Shown: piece by piece, positions 55,196 to 64,000 of the stretch
How the letters are laid out: each line of letters starts with the position of its first letter
Numbering within the stretch: the first letter of the stretch is position 1
Source of the DNA: Thermococcus sp. LS1
GTDB taxonomy: Archaea > Methanobacteriota_B > Thermococci > Thermococcales > Thermococcaceae
Length of the DNA: 64,000 bases
Assembly: GCF_012027395.1 (NCBI RefSeq)
Contig: NZ_SNUJ01000001.1
Coordinates: 682,001-746,000, forward strand
Direction: 5' to 3'
Notes under the pieces: generated by a model
What the model was told of the DNA's origin: nothing
Databases searched by the model: none
What the model saw: only the letters and a program-made list of their open reading frames with translations
Translations under genes and position numbers: made by a program

Positions 55196-56095
55196 ATGAC
55201 GACTTGGGGACTGTGGTATTATAGGTGGGATAGGTCAGAGTACGTGAGGATAAGCGACTGGAACGACCAGAAGTTTGACTACATAGTTGTCACTGATGGA
55301 GGCTACAACGGGACTGAAGGAAAAACTGCCAAGTACTCCGGACCAGGTTACGATGATGGCTACAACGATGCTGGGGAGTTAATAGACATGATAGAGAACC
55401 AGTGGTTGCATAACAGAAACTACATCGTTGAGATACCTTATTTCTACGTCCCTCCCGAAGGTGGTAAAAAGGCACGTCCCCTGGACTACTGGCTTGGCTG
55501 GATCGATGGTGCCGCCAGCAGGGGGAGCTCACGGCTGAGGGGCTTCTACTGGTCGCTTGAGAACATAAGGTACATTCAGGCTGGAAAGCTGAGCAGGTAC
55601 ACGATAGAAACCATCTGGGGCAGGATAATGGAAAACAAGAGAGAATATGGAGTGGATTACCAGTTTATCTGGATACCGAGCTTGAGGAGTCTCTTTGTGA
55701 GCAGAGACTTCTCCTCGGAGCAAGATATTTTAGAGGCAGTAACTTATGAAACGGACGTTCCCAACATAGCGAACTATTTCAACGATGTTTTCATTCAACC
55801 TGGCTACTACTTTATGAACATGGACAATATACTTATTAATGGAGGGATACCTTACACATACTCTCTTTTCGTTGACATCCTAAAGACGATACACGAATAC
55901 ATGCCTTCAAACGTCTCCATCGAGATGGAGGCCGATGGAACTGTTAGGGTTAATGACGACGCTGAAAATTATGCCTGTGATTACGTACGCGCCCAGATAG
56001 ATGCGCTGGGTTATCTGTGGTCAGACAGGGCATACTACTTCGACAAAAGTGAAATCACCTTTGAGCACATGAAAAACGCCTGCCCAGGATGGTGA
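55196..56095 (+). CDS. DUF4855-like protein, probable glycoside-hydrolase fold
   Basis: The product has 299 residues. GFYWSLENIRYIQAG, YQFIWIPSLRSLF and YFNDVFIQPGYYFMNMDN resemble the DUF4855 family, a TIM-barrel-like group linked to carbohydrate metabolism. No signal peptide is visible at the start MTTWGLWYYRWDRSEY, so it would be cytoplasmic unless the true start is elsewhere. GGTGATTT precedes the ATG, and AAAGCTTATATACAAC (55140-55155) is a good promoter. It lies in an AT-richer two-gene unit with the secreted gene that follows, inserted between nadA and nadC. Confidence 0.6.
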   Translation: MTTWGLWYYRWDRSEYVRISDWNDQKFDYIVVTDGGYNGTEGKTAKYSGPGYDDGYNDAGELIDMIENQWLHNRNYIVEIPYFYVPPEGGKKARPLDYWLGWIDGAASRGSSRLRGFYWSLENIRYIQAGKLSRYTIETIWGRIMENKREYGVDYQFIWIPSLRSLFVSRDFSSEQDILEAVTYETDVPNIANYFNDVFIQPGYYFMNMDNILINGGIPYTYSLFVDILKTIHEYMPSNVSIEMEADGTVRVNDDAENYACDYVRAQIDALGYLWSDRAYYFDKSEITFEHMKNACPGW

Positions 56096-56099
56096 GTTA

Positions 56100-57461
56100 A
56101 TGCGAAAGTACATTCTACTGATTTTTCTGCTGCATCTTTTTCTTTCCCATTATGTTTTAGCCGATTCTCCAGAAATTACAGGAATAATCCATTACCATGA
56201 CGGTTTTCTAGTCCTGACTCAAGGATCAGCAAACAACACTACTCAGCTCTGGTTCTTCGAACCGGGGAAGGGTTTTAAGCTCCTGAACGCTACTTTCCCA
56301 AACCTAACCTTCGTCCATTCAAACGGGGAAAGAGTTCTTCTCTACCGAAACCTCTCAAACCCTTACTTCCCGGACTTCCAGCTTTACACCTACGATGGTA
56401 AACTTCACTTCTTGGGGAACTTTACGGGGATAGATGACTTGTACGATGCGAGTGCAATCTACTGGAACGGGGAATTTTACTTTTTCTTTGAGATAGAAGG
56501 GACGTTTAAGGTTGGGCTGTACCACTGGTACGCGATAGTCAATAATTCGATTTACAGCTTAATTAAACCGAGCGACATTGATAAGGAGTATTCCTTTGCA
56601 TGCACCTGGCTTGACGACTCCTGCTATCTGGGAGACATCCAGAGCGTTCCACACGGTTATCTGGTGGTGTACACACCGTTTTCCAGTTACTGGGGAGAGC
56701 CGCAACTTGTTAAACTCAATGGCTCCGAGTTGGTAATCAAGAATTTGACGGAGGATGGCCTGTCCAGTGACTGGGTGCTTCCAAATCTAGATGGACATTA
56801 CGAAGGTTTCCTATGCTTCAACGGCACCCACTTCGCTACCATAATGCATAATGCAAACCAGCTTCTCTTTAACAATAGCACGGTCTGGACTCGCTATTTT
56901 GAAATAATCAACCTAAATGGCAGTTACAGACTTATACCCCTCGGTTCTATTCCGCGAGAGAGCAACCTGTCCCTCACCTTTGCAGGGACTTACAATGGTA
57001 AGTGGATCATTCGCAAGGATTACTGGTGGAAACCGGAGAAAGGGCAAATTCCCAAGTGGCACCGTAAGGTTCTTGAGTACATCCTTATCTCATCCAAGGG
57101 AATTGAGGAGGTTGAAAACGCGACCGATATAACTCCAGTATGCAGGAAGAATCGGCCCCAGGTTGTTTTTATTGGAAGACGTCCAGTTAAGGGCACCCTT
57201 AAGTTCAACGGCAGTGAAGTCACGGTAAACGGAAGTGTTCTGTACCACAAGGGCAACGCCTTTAAGTTGCCCTTTAAACCAAAAATAGCGGACTGTGGCA
57301 ACGGCTGTCTGCTGTCTGATGGGAGGAGACTGGCCTACTTCGATGGGAATGGCGTCCGTATCGTTGAGTTCCCAGGAGAGCGTTCCTTAGAAAGGAGTTA
57401 TCTCGCCGCACTGGGAATTGCGGTTATCGTGCTTCTTTTGGCGTGGAGATTAAGGAAATAA
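56100..57461 (+). CDS. Secreted, membrane-anchored surface protein, possible beta-propeller
   Basis: The 453 residues have an N-terminal signal peptide (MRKYILLIFLLHLFLSHYVL, cut near ADS), many N-x-S/T sites, repeated beta-strand blocks with aromatic and Gly residues (IHYHDGFLVLTQG, AIYWNGEFYFFFE, DGHYEGFLCFNGTHF) that fit a propeller, and a C-terminal anchor (AALGIAVIVLLLAWRLRK). Function unknown. It starts 4 bases after the preceding gene, so the pair forms an operon. Confidence 0.75.
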   Translation: MRKYILLIFLLHLFLSHYVLADSPEITGIIHYHDGFLVLTQGSANNTTQLWFFEPGKGFKLLNATFPNLTFVHSNGERVLLYRNLSNPYFPDFQLYTYDGKLHFLGNFTGIDDLYDASAIYWNGEFYFFFEIEGTFKVGLYHWYAIVNNSIYSLIKPSDIDKEYSFACTWLDDSCYLGDIQSVPHGYLVVYTPFSSYWGEPQLVKLNGSELVIKNLTEDGLSSDWVLPNLDGHYEGFLCFNGTHFATIMHNANQLLFNNSTVWTRYFEIINLNGSYRLIPLGSIPRESNLSLTFAGTYNGKWIIRKDYWWKPEKGQIPKWHRKVLEYILISSKGIEEVENATDITPVCRKNRPQVVFIGRRPVKGTLKFNGSEVTVNGSVLYHKGNAFKLPFKPKIADCGNGCLLSDGRRLAYFDGNGVRIVEFPGERSLERSYLAALGIAVIVLLLAWRLRK

Positions 57462-58532: not shown

Positions 58533-59048
58533 TTATTCTCTCCCCAGTGCACCTGCATACCTGCTGTTTCGTATAAGCTCCTTCACCCGTTCAAGGGCGG
58601 TTAAGTATGCATCTTCTGTGGCATCTTTTAAGTACTCCTCAAGGAACCCTACGGCGGCTTTAACGTACTCCTCAACCCCTATCTTCTCCCGACCAACGAA
58701 CTGCCTCTCCTCAAAGGATTTAATAACTACATAATCGCCCTCCTTCCTGAATACTACTACGAAAATTGGTTCGTAAGTGCCAAAACTTACCCTAAGCTCT
58801 CCGTTCTTGCAGTTCCTCATTATTGCGCTCTTTTCGTCCTCTCAAAATTTCTCAAGCGCGTAGGGAATTTCCCTGCATGACTTGACCGCGTAAGTTACAG
58901 AAGCAAAGAGCGCGCTCAATGCTTGTACAATGTAGCAAGCGGCCTACACAATCCTCTTCTCGTTGACTTCTATGATAAGCCAGGCTCCAAATCCATCGGA
59001 TTCCTTCAGCTTTTCAAGACTTGGCTTAACACAAAATTTAATGCCCAT
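58533..59048 (-). pseudogene. Decayed paralogue of the immunity-like gene (two in-frame stops)
   Basis: From the ATG at 59048 one frame runs 171 codons with a TAG and a TGA inside. It reads MGIKFCVKPSLEKLKESDGF ... VNEKRIV-stop ... EIPYALEKF-stop ... NCKNGELRVSFGTYEPIFVV. The C-terminal half matches the neighbour at 59057 (GTYEPIFVVVF against GSYDPTLVIYG; VGVEEYVKAAV-like against VPVKEFVKVAI). It lies 8 bases after that gene in the same orientation. The intact C-terminal frame from 58820 could still be read. Tandem extra immunity genes are common in toxin-immunity loci. Confidence 0.7.
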
Positions 59049-59056
59049 CACTATCC

Positions 59057-59713
59057 TCACTCTTCGCTCAATTCTTTCAGGTTTTTAAGGAGTTCTTTGT
59101 AGTCATTAATTATCTTTAGGTACCCTTTAATCCCGTTCTCCTCAAATATGCGAGTGCAGGATTCCAACTCTTGGATGGCCTTGTCAGTGACGTTTATTGC
59201 AACCTTCACAAACTCTTTAACCGGTACCCTACAGACCTTCCTGTAATCCACACTTACGAGATAGATATACTCATCCTCCCTGAATCCGTAGATGACTAAA
59301 GTTGGATCATAACTTCCAAGAAAGGATCTCAAGAACAGGTCTGATGCCAATTTGTTAAATTTGTTTTTCAATAGTCCTCTGAGAATTCTGACTTCATTGT
59401 CAAGCCAGTTCGGGAGCTCTTTAGGGATCTTAAAGCTCCATCCGTAGGACCTTACGTTCTTGGGAACTTCCCCAGTTATAGCATAAAATGCAAAGCGGAG
59501 AAGCTCATAGAGGAATTCATTGAAGTTAACGGTCGCATTAAAGATCTTCTCACCTTGGCAGTAGATAGAAACATCGTACTCGCTGAGAGCCATCTCTATT
59601 ATTGATTCGTTTGAATATTCATATTCTCTTCCTTCCGTTGTTGCCTTTTCCGCCATCTTTTCTAATGGTCCAAAGGGTTCGTTAAGTGTGAACGTGATTT
59701 TGAATTCCCCCAT
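59057..59713 (-). CDS. Putative immunity protein of the secreted toxin-like gene
   Basis: The 218 residues begin MGEFKITFTLNEPFGPLEKM; no known domain is recognised. It is acidic to neutral, without a signal peptide or membrane segment, mixing beta strands (FGSYDP-type block, IYLVSVDYRKVCRVPVKEFV) with a helical C terminus. The ATG at 59713 has GGTGG just before it. It follows the secreted gene (59771) by about 57 bases on the same strand and has a decayed tandem paralogue downstream. That order, toxin then immunity then spare immunity, is the reason for the suggested role; it is not shown by homology. Confidence 0.5.
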   Translation of the reverse strand: MGEFKITFTLNEPFGPLEKMAEKATTEGREYEYSNESIIEMALSEYDVSIYCQGEKIFNATVNFNEFLYELLRFAFYAITGEVPKNVRSYGWSFKIPKELPNWLDNEVRILRGLLKNKFNKLASDLFLRSFLGSYDPTLVIYGFREDEYIYLVSVDYRKVCRVPVKEFVKVAINVTDKAIQELESCTRIFEENGIKGYLKIINDYKELLKNLKELSEE

Positions 59714-59770
59714 TTGTACCACCCTTATGGTTATGTAATAAAAATTAAAAAATGGTTTCTTAGATACTAT

Positions 59771-60754
59771 TCAGTCCCAATCTATTGGATGTGCTGTCAC
59801 TATCCTGTAGAGATTATTGGACACTTTCCTAATAACCACCCTTAGCTTGTTCTTGGCGCCAAGCCCGTAGTAATACTTTTCAAGGACTACTTCATTTGGT
59901 GGATTGCTTCTGTCACAGTTTATTTCACCAGTTTCAATTGTCTCTTTGAGCATTTGGAGGAGCATATCTGCGGTTAAGTACTTGAATTTTGACTTGTATT
60001 TCCATTTTTCTTCTAAGATGTGTCGCTCAATTATGTGCTTTGCTCCCATACTGTCAATAATGACATCCCCTTCTGGGAAGTAGCCACCACAGCTGTATCT
60101 CCCCTTAAAGTGTGCCCTGAAGCTCTTGTACTTTCTGTCAAATTCCTCGGCAAGTTTCTTCGCGTCATTTGCGTCCCATCCGTTAAGCCAGGCCCTCGCG
60201 AGTAGTTGTCCAAATTCTTTTGGACTGAAGAGGTCGCTGACTTGGTCAAGCTCGCTGGTTTTGACTTCCACTATCTTTCTTGAGCCATCATAGATTACAA
60301 TACTTTCAACTTTAGGTAGTGGAATGATCCAGATTTTCTTTAGGTTGTACTTAACGTCTGGATCCTTCATGTAATGGCCTGCAGTCGTCAGGAAACCATC
60401 ACCAAACTCCGAGGTTTGTTTAATGCCTATGGCCTTCAGCACATACTTGCCAGGTGAACCCCCGTATTTCTCAATGACCCTGTAAAGTCCAATGGCAGCT
60501 ATTGTAGCTAAGCTTACGGTTATGGCTAACAGTTCAGTACTGCCCACTACTATACTTATACCAACACCAATAGCTGGTAGGAACTGCGGCTGGACTTCAT
60601 CTCCTGGCTTCCTCTCAGGATTGAATTCTGACGGGAGTTCTACGGTGCTGTTCGAGGTAGTGTTCACTAACTCTGCCGTGGCGCTTGCACTGCTGACTGT
60701 CATTCCAAGAAAGAGTACAACTAGGATAAGGGCAACAATCCTACGCCATTCCAT
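59771..60754 (-). CDS. Secreted protein with a nuclease-toxin-like C-terminal domain
   Basis: The 327 residues start with a signal peptide MEWRRIVALILVVLFLGMTV cut near SSASA, then a short Pro/Glu/Asn-rich segment with N-x-T/S sites, a hydrophobic stretch (LPAIGVGISIVVGSTELLAI onward, about 60-95), and a soluble C-terminal region. The last 90 residues have KHIIERH (H240, R244, H245), NPPNEVVLEKYYY, LRVVIRKVSN and RIVTAHPIDWD (T320, H322). The HIIxRH ... V-x-T-A-x-P pattern is seen in BECR-type ribonuclease toxins of polymorphic toxin systems. GGTGATACA precedes the ATG at 60754. Function not proven; a surface or cell-wall enzyme is an alternative. Confidence 0.55.
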   Translation of the reverse strand: MEWRRIVALILVVLFLGMTVSSASATAELVNTTSNSTVELPSEFNPERKPGDEVQPQFLPAIGVGISIVVGSTELLAITVSLATIAAIGLYRVIEKYGGSPGKYVLKAIGIKQTSEFGDGFLTTAGHYMKDPDVKYNLKKIWIIPLPKVESIVIYDGSRKIVEVKTSELDQVSDLFSPKEFGQLLARAWLNGWDANDAKKLAEEFDRKYKSFRAHFKGRYSCGGYFPEGDVIIDSMGAKHIIERHILEEKWKYKSKFKYLTADMLLQMLKETIETGEINCDRSNPPNEVVLEKYYYGLGAKNKLRVVIRKVSNNLYRIVTAHPIDWD

Positions 60755-60784
60755 TGTATCACCAGTGTTGAGCACACGATTGCA

Positions 60785-60797
60785 GTTTTTAAACTTT
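60785..60797 (-). promoter_or_regulatory. TATA box of the toxin-like operon
   Basis: On the minus strand AAGTTTAAAAACTGC lies about 35-40 bases before the ATG at 60754. Confidence 0.5.
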
Positions 60798-60966
60798 TCT
60801 TAGTAATAAAGGAGTTATGTCTTGGCAAACATCGTTGAGTAGTAAGCTAGGGACAGAAAAATATTTGCTGGATTTTTAATCCAATCCGAACAACCCTGTA
60901 CAATATTCTCCGGCTGTTAAGTCTTTAAACTGCTTCCCTGGTCATTTCTGCTCCCACACCGCAATC

Positions 60967-60974
60967 CTTATATT
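60967..60974 (+). promoter_or_regulatory. pdxS promoter TATA box
   Basis: ATCCTTATATTCAAG lies about 55 bases before the ATG at 61026. It overlaps the inverted repeat TCAAG-TTTTTT-CTTGA, which could bind a regulator. AAAGGTGA at 61013-61020 is the ribosome binding site. Confidence 0.5.
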
Positions 60975-61025
60975 CAAGTTTTTTCTTGAGATTATTGCAA
61001 GTTAAAGCTTGAAAAGGTGATACCG

Positions 61026-62033
61026 ATGGGAAGGCTCCACGTTATTGAGGCTAAGGGCACGGAAAGGCTGAAGCGCGGCTTCGCCAAGATGGTCAAGGGC
61101 GGCGTAATTATGGACGTCACCAACGCCGAGCAGGCGAGGATTGCGGAAGAGGCCGGTGCAGTTTCTGTCATGGCCCTTCACAAAGTTCCGGCCGACATTA
61201 GGAAGGCAGGTGGAGTTGCAAGGATGGCTCCGATAGAGAAGATCCAGGAAATAATGGACGCGGTGACGATTCCTGTCATGGCCAAGGTCAGGATAGGCCA
61301 CGTCGCCGAGGCTAGAGTTCTTGAGGCGCTCGGTGTAGACATGATAGACGAGAGCGAAGTATTAACTCCAGCGGACCCGTTCTTCCACATAGACAAGAGG
61401 GAGTTCAACGTTCCCTTCGTCTGTGGAGCGAGGAATCTCGGGGAGGCCGTCAGGAGGATATGGGAAGGCTCCGCCATGATAAGAACCAAGGGTGAGGCCG
61501 GAACCGGCAACATCGTCGAGGCAGTCAGACACGTTAGGCTCGTCGCCGACAACATAAGGCTCATCCAGCGCATGACGGACGAGCAGGTTTATGCCGTGGC
61601 TGAAAAGTTCGCCGAGCCGTACCTCAGGCTGGCCAGGCAGATAAGGGAAATAAGCGGCCTGCCGGGGCAGGTCCTTGAGAACGAGCCCGTTTACGGCCAC
61701 TACACCTACCGCGAGATAGTTGACGGCCTCTACAAGATTCTCCTGGAAATAAAGAAGCTCGGAAGGCTGCCCGTGGTTAACTTCGCCGCCGGAGGAGTTG
61801 CCACTCCAGCTGACGCTGCCCTGATGATGCAGATGGGCATGGACGGCGTCTTCGTGGGCAGCGGCATCTTCAAGAGCTCCAATCCGGAAAAGATGGCCAG
61901 GGCAATAGTTGAGGCCGTTAACCACTGGGACGAGCCGGACGTTATAGCCGAGATAAGCAAAGAGATCGGCGAGCCCATGAAGGGCTTGGAGATTGAGGAG
62001 CTCGAGGTCCGCCTCGAGGAGAGGGGCGTCTGA
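61026..62033 (+). CDS. pdxS: Pyridoxal 5'-phosphate synthase subunit PdxS
   Basis: The product has 335 residues. [40 protein letters not shown] (substrate lysines), [16 protein letters not shown] and [20 protein letters not shown] are the PdxS motifs. It makes PLP from ribose 5-phosphate, glyceraldehyde 3-phosphate and ammonia from PdxT. The ATG at 61026 is preceded by AAAGGTGA; the GTG nine bases earlier is inside that site. It is co-transcribed with pdxT. Confidence 0.97.
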
Positions 62034-62065
62034 GCTTTTCTTTCTCTATTTCTGGGGGTGAGAAG

Positions 62066-62659
62066 GTGCTCAAAGTCGGAGTTATTGGTGTTCAGGGGGC
62101 GGTTAGCGAGCACATCGAGGCGGCGAAGAGGGCCTTCGAGAGGCTCGGCGTCGAGGGGGAGGCATTCTGGCTGAGGAGGCCCGAGCAATTGAATGCCATT
62201 GACGTGATAATCCTGCCGGGCGGAGAGAGCACGACCATATCTCGGCTGATGCAGAAGAACGGTCTCTTTGAGCCGGTTAAGAAGCTCGGTGAGGAAGGGC
62301 TTCCAATAATGGGCACCTGTGCCGGTTTAATCCTCCTCGCAAAGGAGGTCGAGGGAGCCGTTGAGGGGCAGCGCTTTCTGGAGCTCCTCGACGTCAGGGT
62401 TAACAGAAACGCCTACGGCAGGCAGGTGGACAGTTTCGAAGCCCCGTTAAAGCTGTCCTTCAGCGATGAACCGTTCCCGGGTGTCTTCATCCGCGCGCCG
62501 AGGATAGTCAAGCTTCTGGGCGATAAGGTCAAGCCCATAGCCTGGCACGGCGATGAGGTCGTTGGCGTAGAGCAGGGGAACATCATTGGCTTAGCGTTCC
62601 ATCCTGAGTTAACCGAAGACGCGAGGCTGCATGAGTACTTCCTCAGGAAGGCTCTTTGA
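62066..62659 (+). CDS. pdxT: Pyridoxal 5'-phosphate synthase glutaminase PdxT
   Basis: The product has 197 residues. VGVIGVQGAVSEHIEAAKRA, DVIILPGGESTTISRLMQKN, MGTCAGLILLAKEVEG (nucleophile Cys) and GLAFHPELTEDARLHEYFL (His-Glu of the triad) define the class I glutaminase PdxT. It releases ammonia from glutamine for PdxS. GTG start with GGGGGTGAG upstream. Confidence 0.97.
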   Translation: MLKVGVIGVQGAVSEHIEAAKRAFERLGVEGEAFWLRRPEQLNAIDVIILPGGESTTISRLMQKNGLFEPVKKLGEEGLPIMGTCAGLILLAKEVEGAVEGQRFLELLDVRVNRNAYGRQVDSFEAPLKLSFSDEPFPGVFIRAPRIVKLLGDKVKPIAWHGDEVVGVEQGNIIGLAFHPELTEDARLHEYFLRKAL

Positions 62660-62694
62660 CTTTACAAATTTTCATGTATTCAGAATAAGGAGGC

Positions 62695-64000
62695 TCAGAA
62701 GCGGAAAGCCCACTCTGGATACTCGCCGGTGAGGCAGGCGGTGCAGAGCCCCCTCTTCCCCACTGCCTTTTTCAACCCCTCGACGCTTAGATACGCCAGA
62801 CTATCAGCTCCAATGGCTTTCATGACCTTCTCGATGCCGCCGAAGGCCGCTATGAGCTCGTGCCTGGTGGGGATGTCTATTCCCATGTAGCAGGGATACC
62901 TTATCGGTGGCGAAGCGATCCTCACGTGCACCTCCTTCGCGCCGGCCTTTTTGAGCATTGCAACGATCCTCTTCATCGTCGTGCCCCTGACTATTGAATC
63001 GTCCACGAGGACGACTTTTCTGCCCTCGACGATTTCCTTAACTGGCGAGAGCTTGAGCTTGACCTTCAGCTCGCGGTAGAACTGCCCCGGGGTTATGAAC
63101 GTCCTTCCGATGTAGCGGTTCTTTATGAGCCCCTCAGAGTATGGGATGCCGCTTTCCTGGGAAAAGCCCAGAGCGGCTGCCCTTCCGGAGTCGGGAACCG
63201 CTATGACGACGTCTCCATCGGCAGGGCTTTCCTTTGCAAGTTCATGGCCCATTCTGACCCTCGCCGAGTAAACGCTAACACCCTCAATCGTGCTGTCCGG
63301 CCGGGCGAAGTATATGTACTCAAAGACGCAGTGGTGGTGGCTCTCCTCCACTAGAACTTTGCTCTCAACCGAATCATCCACGAAGAAGACCTCGCCGGGC
63401 TTTACGTCCCTTATCTCATCAACAAAGAGACTCAGCGCGGAATCTTCGGAGGCGAAGTAGTGGCCGTCTCCGGTTCCGTAGCTCAGCGGGCGAAATCCTA
63501 CAGGGTCCCTCGCGACGATTATCTTCCCGTCGAAAAGGAAGGCAACGGAATACGCGCCTTTGACCTCGTTGAAAACTTCTCCCATCGCCTCGAACTCGTC
63601 CCTGGTTTCCTTGAGGTGCCAGAGGAAGGAAACGCCAAGGAGCTCGGAATCGACGGAGTGGCTGAACCTAACACCAAGTCTCTCGTAGTGCCTCCTCAGG
63701 GGAAGAAAATTCGTGAGGGTGCCGTTGTGAGCCAAAGCAAGCCTCTTCCCGCAGCAGGAGACCTCGAGCGGCTGGGTCTCGTTCAGCGAGCCGGAGGTGG
63801 AGTAGCGGACATGGGCTACGGCAAGGTTGGACTTCAGCTTTGCCAGCCCCTTTCCCTTGAACACCTCGGAGACAAGGCCTTGGCCGGCCACCGTTTTAAT
63901 TCTGTGCTTCCAGATGCTTATTCCTGCACTCTCCTGGCCGCGGTGCTGCAGAGCGATGAGTGCGTAGTATGCCTTCGTCGGGGCGTTTTCAGTCTTCGCT
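62695..64000 (-). CDS. purF: Amidophosphoribosyltransferase (5' end cut by the window)
   Basis: 435 codons lie in the window; the frame runs off the right edge at [20 protein letters not shown], so only about ten N-terminal residues, including the catalytic Cys, are missing. [20 protein letters not shown] and [12 protein letters not shown] are the glutaminase part, [20 protein letters not shown] the PRPP site, and the cysteines in [15 protein letters not shown] and LCTACLTG suit the 4Fe-4S type enzyme. It starts purine synthesis from PRPP and glutamine. It is convergent with pdxT. Confidence 0.95.

What the first reader, a model, noticed from the sequence alone, without database searches (positions are those of the whole stretch)
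58533..60797. Candidate archaeal polymorphic toxin-immunity locus
A secreted protein with a hydrophobic middle and a C-terminal His/Arg/Thr domain of BECR-nuclease type is followed by an unknown cytoplasmic protein and a decayed paralogue of that protein. The order toxin, immunity, spare immunity is typical of contact-dependent or secreted polymorphic toxins in bacteria. Few such loci have been described in hyperthermophilic archaea.
Basis: partly seen in the sequence, partly recalled or inferred. Interest (0 to 1): 0.75.

Follow-up and report, generated by a model that had tools for sequence, protein, structure and literature searches.

The report
Swappable archaeal nuclease toxins with immunity
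A heat-loving archaeon carries a secreted protein whose predicted RNA-cutting tail is swapped, together with its matching antidote gene, between related strains and species, which is the genetic signature of weapons used against close relatives.

Summary
On the minus strand, in a Thermococcaceae genome, lie an intact secreted 327-aa protein (59771-60754), a cytoplasmic 221-aa protein (59057-59722), and a pseudogene (58533-59048, two in-frame stops).

Comparison with 93 family genomes shows a polymorphic toxin-immunity system. One Sec-signal N-terminus carries interchangeable C-terminal nuclease domains (several BECR classes, EndoU-like, PD-(D/E)XK), and each class has its own immunity family next door. 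Over 50 non-redundant pairs, toxin-tip similarity predicts next-gene similarity (Mantel r=0.85, 0/5000 permutations). The N-terminus of the same proteins predicts neither (r=0.01 and 0.03). A related genome with the same chromosomal site is 94% identical in DNA from pdxT through pdxS into toxin codon ~208. There identity ends and both tip and immunity gene differ.

The pseudogene belongs to a different immunity family, cognate to another toxin class, so it is decayed foreign immunity rather than a spare copy. Invariant residues are H240, H245 and T320; H322 is not conserved. The best PDB fold match is a contact-dependent growth inhibition (CDI) toxin of BECR fold, with a weak E-value. The immunity fold has no PDB match.

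Toxicity, delivery and target are untested. New variant of a known kind; an earlier description (Makarova 2019) could not be checked.

The parts
60786..60798 (-). Archaeal BRE/TATA-like promoter element (AAAAGTTTAAAAA) upstream of the toxin
   Evidence: sequence read directly, position checked; function inferred
60680..60754 (-). Sec signal peptide, toxin residues 1-25 (MEWRRIVALILVVLFLGMTVSSASA)
   Evidence: conserved in profile A2, found in the family genomes; hydropathy
60464..60679 (-). Linker with conserved PGDEVQP motif and hydrophobic Gly-rich stretch, residues 26-97
   Evidence: low AF2 confidence
60131..60247 (-). Constant helical linker SDLFSPKEFGQLLARAWLNGWDANDAKKLAEEF, residues 170-208; the point where identity with the allele of L047 ends
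   Evidence: orphan cassettes begin within it
59774..60130 (-). C-terminal BECR-type nuclease (toxin) domain, residues 209-327, class C0a
   Evidence: PBECR1 E=0.014 for this member, PBECR2/3 and EndoU for relatives; fold hits 7m5f (CdiA-CT) and BrnT
60035..60037 (-). H240, invariant, predicted catalytic
60020..60022 (-). H245, invariant, predicted catalytic
59795..59797 (-). T320, invariant, predicted catalytic
59771..60754 (-). Whole toxin gene, 327 aa, intact
   Evidence: homologues
59057..59722 (-). Cognate immunity gene, family I1, 221 aa (GTG 59722 or ATG 59713), no signal peptide
   Evidence: AF2 pLDDT 89
58533..59048 (-). Pseudogene of immunity family I4 (cognate of toxin class C3); in-frame stops at 58944-58946 and 58842-58844

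Best explanation
This is a polymorphic toxin-immunity locus of Thermococcaceae. A Sec-exported protein carries a C-terminal BECR-fold nuclease, most likely an RNase. The proposed mechanism is that the exported protein reaches neighbouring cells at the surface or in vesicles, and its hydrophobic Gly-rich segment helps the nuclease into the target cytosol, where it cuts RNA (perhaps tRNA). The cytoplasmic protein encoded next to it binds and blocks the nuclease, protecting the producer and its kin. Strains diversify by exchanging the tip and its immunity gene as one unit, by recombination in the constant linker, and they collect immunity genes against tips of others. The pseudogene in the window is one such immunity, now decaying. 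Shown by sequence: secretion signal, modularity, co-exchange, near one-to-one pairing. Inferred: nuclease activity, inhibition, delivery, target.
For: Same N-terminus with BECR, EndoU-like and PD-(D/E)XK tips. Tip-immunity Mantel r=0.85 over 50 pairs, 0/5000 permutations; N-terminus against immunity r=0.01, N-terminus against tip r=0.03. Allele replacement at the pdxS site with a sharp junction at codon ~208. Displaced old cassettes next to a new one (L055 against L052). Orphan tip cassettes and 140 immunity ORFs against 62 tips. BECR profile hits, invariant H, H, T, CDI toxin fold hit with probability 0.97. Immunity proteins lack signal peptides, placing the target in the cytosol. Low dN/dS.
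Against: No toxicity or binding data. The window's own tip is below Pfam's cut-off (E=0.014-0.036) and the PDB fold match has E=0.045. No known delivery machine is evident: the one contractile-system marker tried (PF04965) is absent, and the route across the target membrane is unknown. A single hydrophobic helix after a cleaved signal peptide could also leave the tip in the producer's cytosol.
Confidence: 0.88

Rival explanations
1. A type II toxin-antitoxin module that acts inside its own cell (RelE/BrnT-like) and happens to carry an N-terminal hydrophobic segment.
For: BECR folds include RelE and BrnT (BrnT hit); two adjacent genes.
Against: The toxins carry a conserved Sec signal and linker; antitoxin-like DNA-binding domains are absent; tips swap behind a constant exported N-terminus, which is not how type II modules evolve.
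Confidence: 0.06
2. An exported nuclease for nutrition or extracellular RNA/DNA turnover, with unrelated downstream genes.
For: Thermococcales are heterotrophs; a standalone exported BECR-like protein without an immunity family exists next to hisS.
Against: The strict tip-to-next-gene pairing and co-replacement would be unexplained for a nutritional enzyme; so would the arrays of cytoplasmic partner genes.
Confidence: 0.03
3. A surface recognition or adhesion module of the VARTIG type with variable ends and no toxicity.
For: VARTIG modules in Thermococcales also have a constant first gene and variable ends (PMC8416519).
Against: No Ig domain is reported for these proteins by Pfam; the variable ends are nuclease-like, which VARTIG ends are not.
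Confidence: 0.03

Closest known systems
Contact-dependent growth inhibition (CdiA-CT/CdiI), e.g. Serratia marcescens BWH57, PDB 7M5F
   Same: BECR-fold C-terminal toxin with a cognate cytoplasmic immunity gene next to it, exchanged as a unit at a constant linker; displaced orphan cassettes; two helix histidines five residues apart (H47/H52 there, H240/H245 here; PMC8616854)
   Different: No filamentous haemagglutinin stalk or CdiB; the carrier is a ~200-residue Sec-exported protein; immunity fold unrelated to PDB entries
Polymorphic toxin systems sensu Zhang et al. 2012 (PMC3482391)
   Same: Constant trafficking N-terminus, polymorphic nuclease tips, standalone tip cassettes, neighbouring immunity genes, polyimmunity arrays
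   Different: Hyperthermophilic archaeal lineage; unknown short delivery module; that paper reported extended polyimmunity loci only in some bacterial lineages and few archaeal cases
PBECR1/2/3 and EndoU_bacteria Pfam nucleases
   Same: Weak profile matches of the tips
   Different: Below gathering cut-offs for the window's tip; a separate family
VARTIG modules of Thermococcales (PMC8416519)
   Same: Hypervariable ends behind a constant first part, same order of archaea
   Different: Ig domains, membrane partners, no nuclease
Haloarchaeal T6SS-like toxin-immunity pairs (PMC11566945)
   Same: Archaeal inter-cell antagonism with toxin-immunity pairs
   Different: Needs a contractile injection system; its marker PF04965 is absent from this genome

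Membership tests
Polymorphic toxin systems | Constant N-terminal trafficking region joined to varied C-terminal toxin domains | tested here: met
   BECR, EndoU-like and PD-(D/E)XK tips on one N-terminus; N-terminus and tip similarity uncorrelated (r=0.03)
Polymorphic toxin systems | Cognate immunity gene directly downstream, specific to the tip | tested here: met
   50 pairs, Mantel r=0.85, near one-to-one classes; physical inhibition not tested
Polymorphic toxin systems | Recombination with standalone tip cassettes | tested here: met
   Orphan tips in L032, L042, L044, L074 and others; junction mapped; displaced cassette
Polymorphic toxin systems | Known secretion/delivery route (T2SS, T5SS, T6SS, T7SS, PVC, etc.) | tested here: inconclusive
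   Sec signal present; PF04965 (contractile systems) absent from the genome; other routes not searched
Polymorphic toxin systems | Toxicity neutralised by the partner | not testable with these tools
   needs bench work
BECR-fold nucleases | Helical segment followed by a beta meander, with conserved H, H, [ST] | tested here: met
   AF2: helices 235-246 and 262-275, then strands 288-294, 303-312, 315-324; H240, H245, T320 invariant; 7m5f hit probability 0.97 but E=0.045
CDI (CdiB/CdiA two-partner secretion) | CdiB transporter and long FHA-repeat CdiA stalk | tested here: not met
   Protein is 327 aa with no stalk; no such Pfam domain found
Type II toxin-antitoxin | Non-secreted toxin with antitoxin, usually DNA-binding | tested here: not met
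   Conserved signal peptide; no DNA-binding family in the partners
VARTIG | Ig domains in the first protein | tested here: not met
   No Ig family reported by Pfam

The most novel reading that the evidence does not exclude
Thermococcaceae have their own compact weapon system: a ~200-residue Sec-exported carrier with a Gly-rich hydrophobic segment that delivers any of several nuclease tips into archaeal cells without an injection machine, neutralised by a large archaeal immunity superfamily (I1-I5, I8) of a fold not seen in the PDB.
Probability: 0.5. Interest if true: 0.8.

Novelty: new variant of a known kind. Interest (0 to 1): 0.63.

Why it matters
Archaeal polymorphic toxins have been predicted, but the 2021 VARTIG paper states that none had been experimentally characterised (PMC8416519). 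This locus gives a defined, compact and testable toxin-immunity pair in a lineage with genetically tractable members, predicts which immunity protein should neutralise which tip, and names the residues to mutate. It also supplies a new immunity superfamily, and a question of how a nuclease enters an archaeal cell without a known injector.

Tried and rejected
Type II toxin-antitoxin, nutritional nuclease and VARTIG readings were considered and rejected (see rivals). A phage or plasmid origin was sought: no match in INPHARED, PLSDB or IMG/VR, and the two tRNA genes in the window lie far from the locus. PADLOC gave no hit. Sequence searches of the PDB found no real relative of toxin or immunity. 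The immunity model matched nothing in the PDB or viral library at E<=0.001. The key earlier paper (mBio 2019, 10.1128/mBio.00715-19) is not held, so prior description of this family cannot be excluded.

Full report
Observation. The toxin starts at ATG 60754 after GGTGAT, with a BRE/TATA-like box at 60786-60798. It has a signal peptide, a linker with a conserved PGDEVQP motif, a hydrophobic Gly-rich stretch, a middle region, a helical linker and a C-terminal domain. The second gene encodes a cytoplasmic 221-aa protein. The third ORF is the 3' half of a pseudogene (58533-59048) with TAG at codon 35 and TGA at codon 69 and no frameshift.

Distribution. The window lies in a 2.0-Mb Thermococcaceae genome that holds a second, intact copy at 46% identity. 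Homologues occur in 32 of 94 family genomes. The tip profile finds none outside the family among 115 genomes of the phylum. The N-terminal profile finds 29 genomes at E<=1e-12 (my count).

Polymorphism. The N-terminus also carries PD-(D/E)XK tips (UPF0102, Hjc and Mrr_cat profiles, the best at E=1e-4) and EndoU-like or PBECR2/3 tips. BECR tips occur as orphan cassettes in arrays. For each tip I took the next same-strand gene mechanically. After removing redundancy, 50 pairs remained. Tip and next-gene similarity correlate at r=0.85 (no permutation of 5000 reached it; maximum 0.16). With BECR tips only, 35 pairs give r=0.86. In 14 full-length BECR toxins the N-terminal part correlates with neither immunity (r=0.01, p=0.38) nor tip (r=0.03, p=0.33), while tip and immunity give r=0.86. 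Eight tip classes map nearly one-to-one on nine immunity families. The one exception, L072, has a gene of the expected family further downstream.

Exchange caught in place. At the pdxS site, L047 (genome G029) is 94% identical in DNA to window 60131-62700, covering pdxT, pdxS, the promoter and toxin codons 1-208. Below 60131 identity is lost and both tip and immunity family differ (I1 in the window, I3 in L047). The junction lies in the linker SDLFSPKEFGQLLARAWLNGWDANDAKKLAEEF, which plays the role of the VENN-type boundary of CDI (comparison from general knowledge). The L047 toxin is itself broken by stops. L055 and L052 share another site: L055 has a new EndoU-like tip and partner in front of fragments of the old PD-(D/E)XK tip and its immunity. 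The window's whole operon also matches L040 (72% over 2.2 kb) at a different chromosomal site.

Immunity. The loci hold 140 immunity ORFs against 62 tip ORFs; 83 do not follow a tip directly. Families I1, I2, I3, I4, I5 and I8 are linked by profile comparison (pairwise links from about 1e-4 to 2e-15) and most share a [FL]G[ST][YF][DE]P motif; I0 and I6 are not linked, and I7 matched only the N-terminal part of I3. The window's pseudogene belongs to I4. I1 is modelled with confidence (pLDDT 89) and matches no PDB or viral model at E<=0.001.

Nuclease. Individual tips match PBECR3 (best 2e-5), PBECR2 (2e-6), PBECR1 and EndoU. H240, H245 and T320 are invariant in 12 diverse tips; H322 varies. The AF2 model (mean pLDDT 71, about 90 in much of the tip) has helices followed by a beta meander. 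Its best PDB match is 7m5f chain C, probability 0.97, E=0.045, and BrnT is also matched at probability 0.91. The 7M5F paper describes the toxin as BECR fold, with H47, E51, H52 and R89 as candidate active site (PMC8616854). The spacing of the two histidines is the same here; that they superpose is inferred.

Mechanism and limits. Cytoplasmic immunity implies a cytoplasmic target. Export by Sec is likely. How the tip leaves the producer's envelope and enters the target is unknown; the Gly-rich hydrophobic segment is the obvious candidate. No contractile-system marker was found in the genome. Toxin and immunity are under purifying selection, though dS is near saturation in most comparisons.

Novelty. 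The system fits the definition of polymorphic toxin systems (PMC3482391) and works like CDI, but is not CDI. New here are the archaeal hyperthermophile setting, the short carrier and the immunity superfamily. Makarova et al. 2019 catalogued archaeal polymorphic toxins and could not be read, so priority is uncertain.

Noticed in passing
L085-L092 (regions next to hisS in several Thermococcus-type genomes): A conserved 155-185-aa BECR-like protein, usually with a signal peptide, sits beside hisS with no immunity family next to it; E 1e-7 to 3e-5 to the tip profile.
   Followed up: partly
L055 4562-7750 against L052 2259-5631: Same chromosomal site with a new EndoU-like tip and partner placed in front of displaced remnants of the old PD-(D/E)XK tip and immunity.
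   Followed up: partly
L073 6812-7300 against L074 6643-7725: A peptidase-like ORF appears fused to or interrupted by a toxin tip near a contig end; may be an assembly error.
   Followed up: no
L075 1-3419: A contig labelled Thermotogota MAG carries a Thermococcaceae-type toxin and immunity array; probably mis-binned.
   Followed up: partly
window 55196-56095 and 56100-57461: Two adjacent genes, the second with a signal peptide and C-terminal membrane helix, without any Pfam match.
   Followed up: no
window, L032, L047, L067, L068: The stretch just upstream of pdxS-pdxT is a recurrent site for these toxin loci in different genomes.
   Followed up: partly
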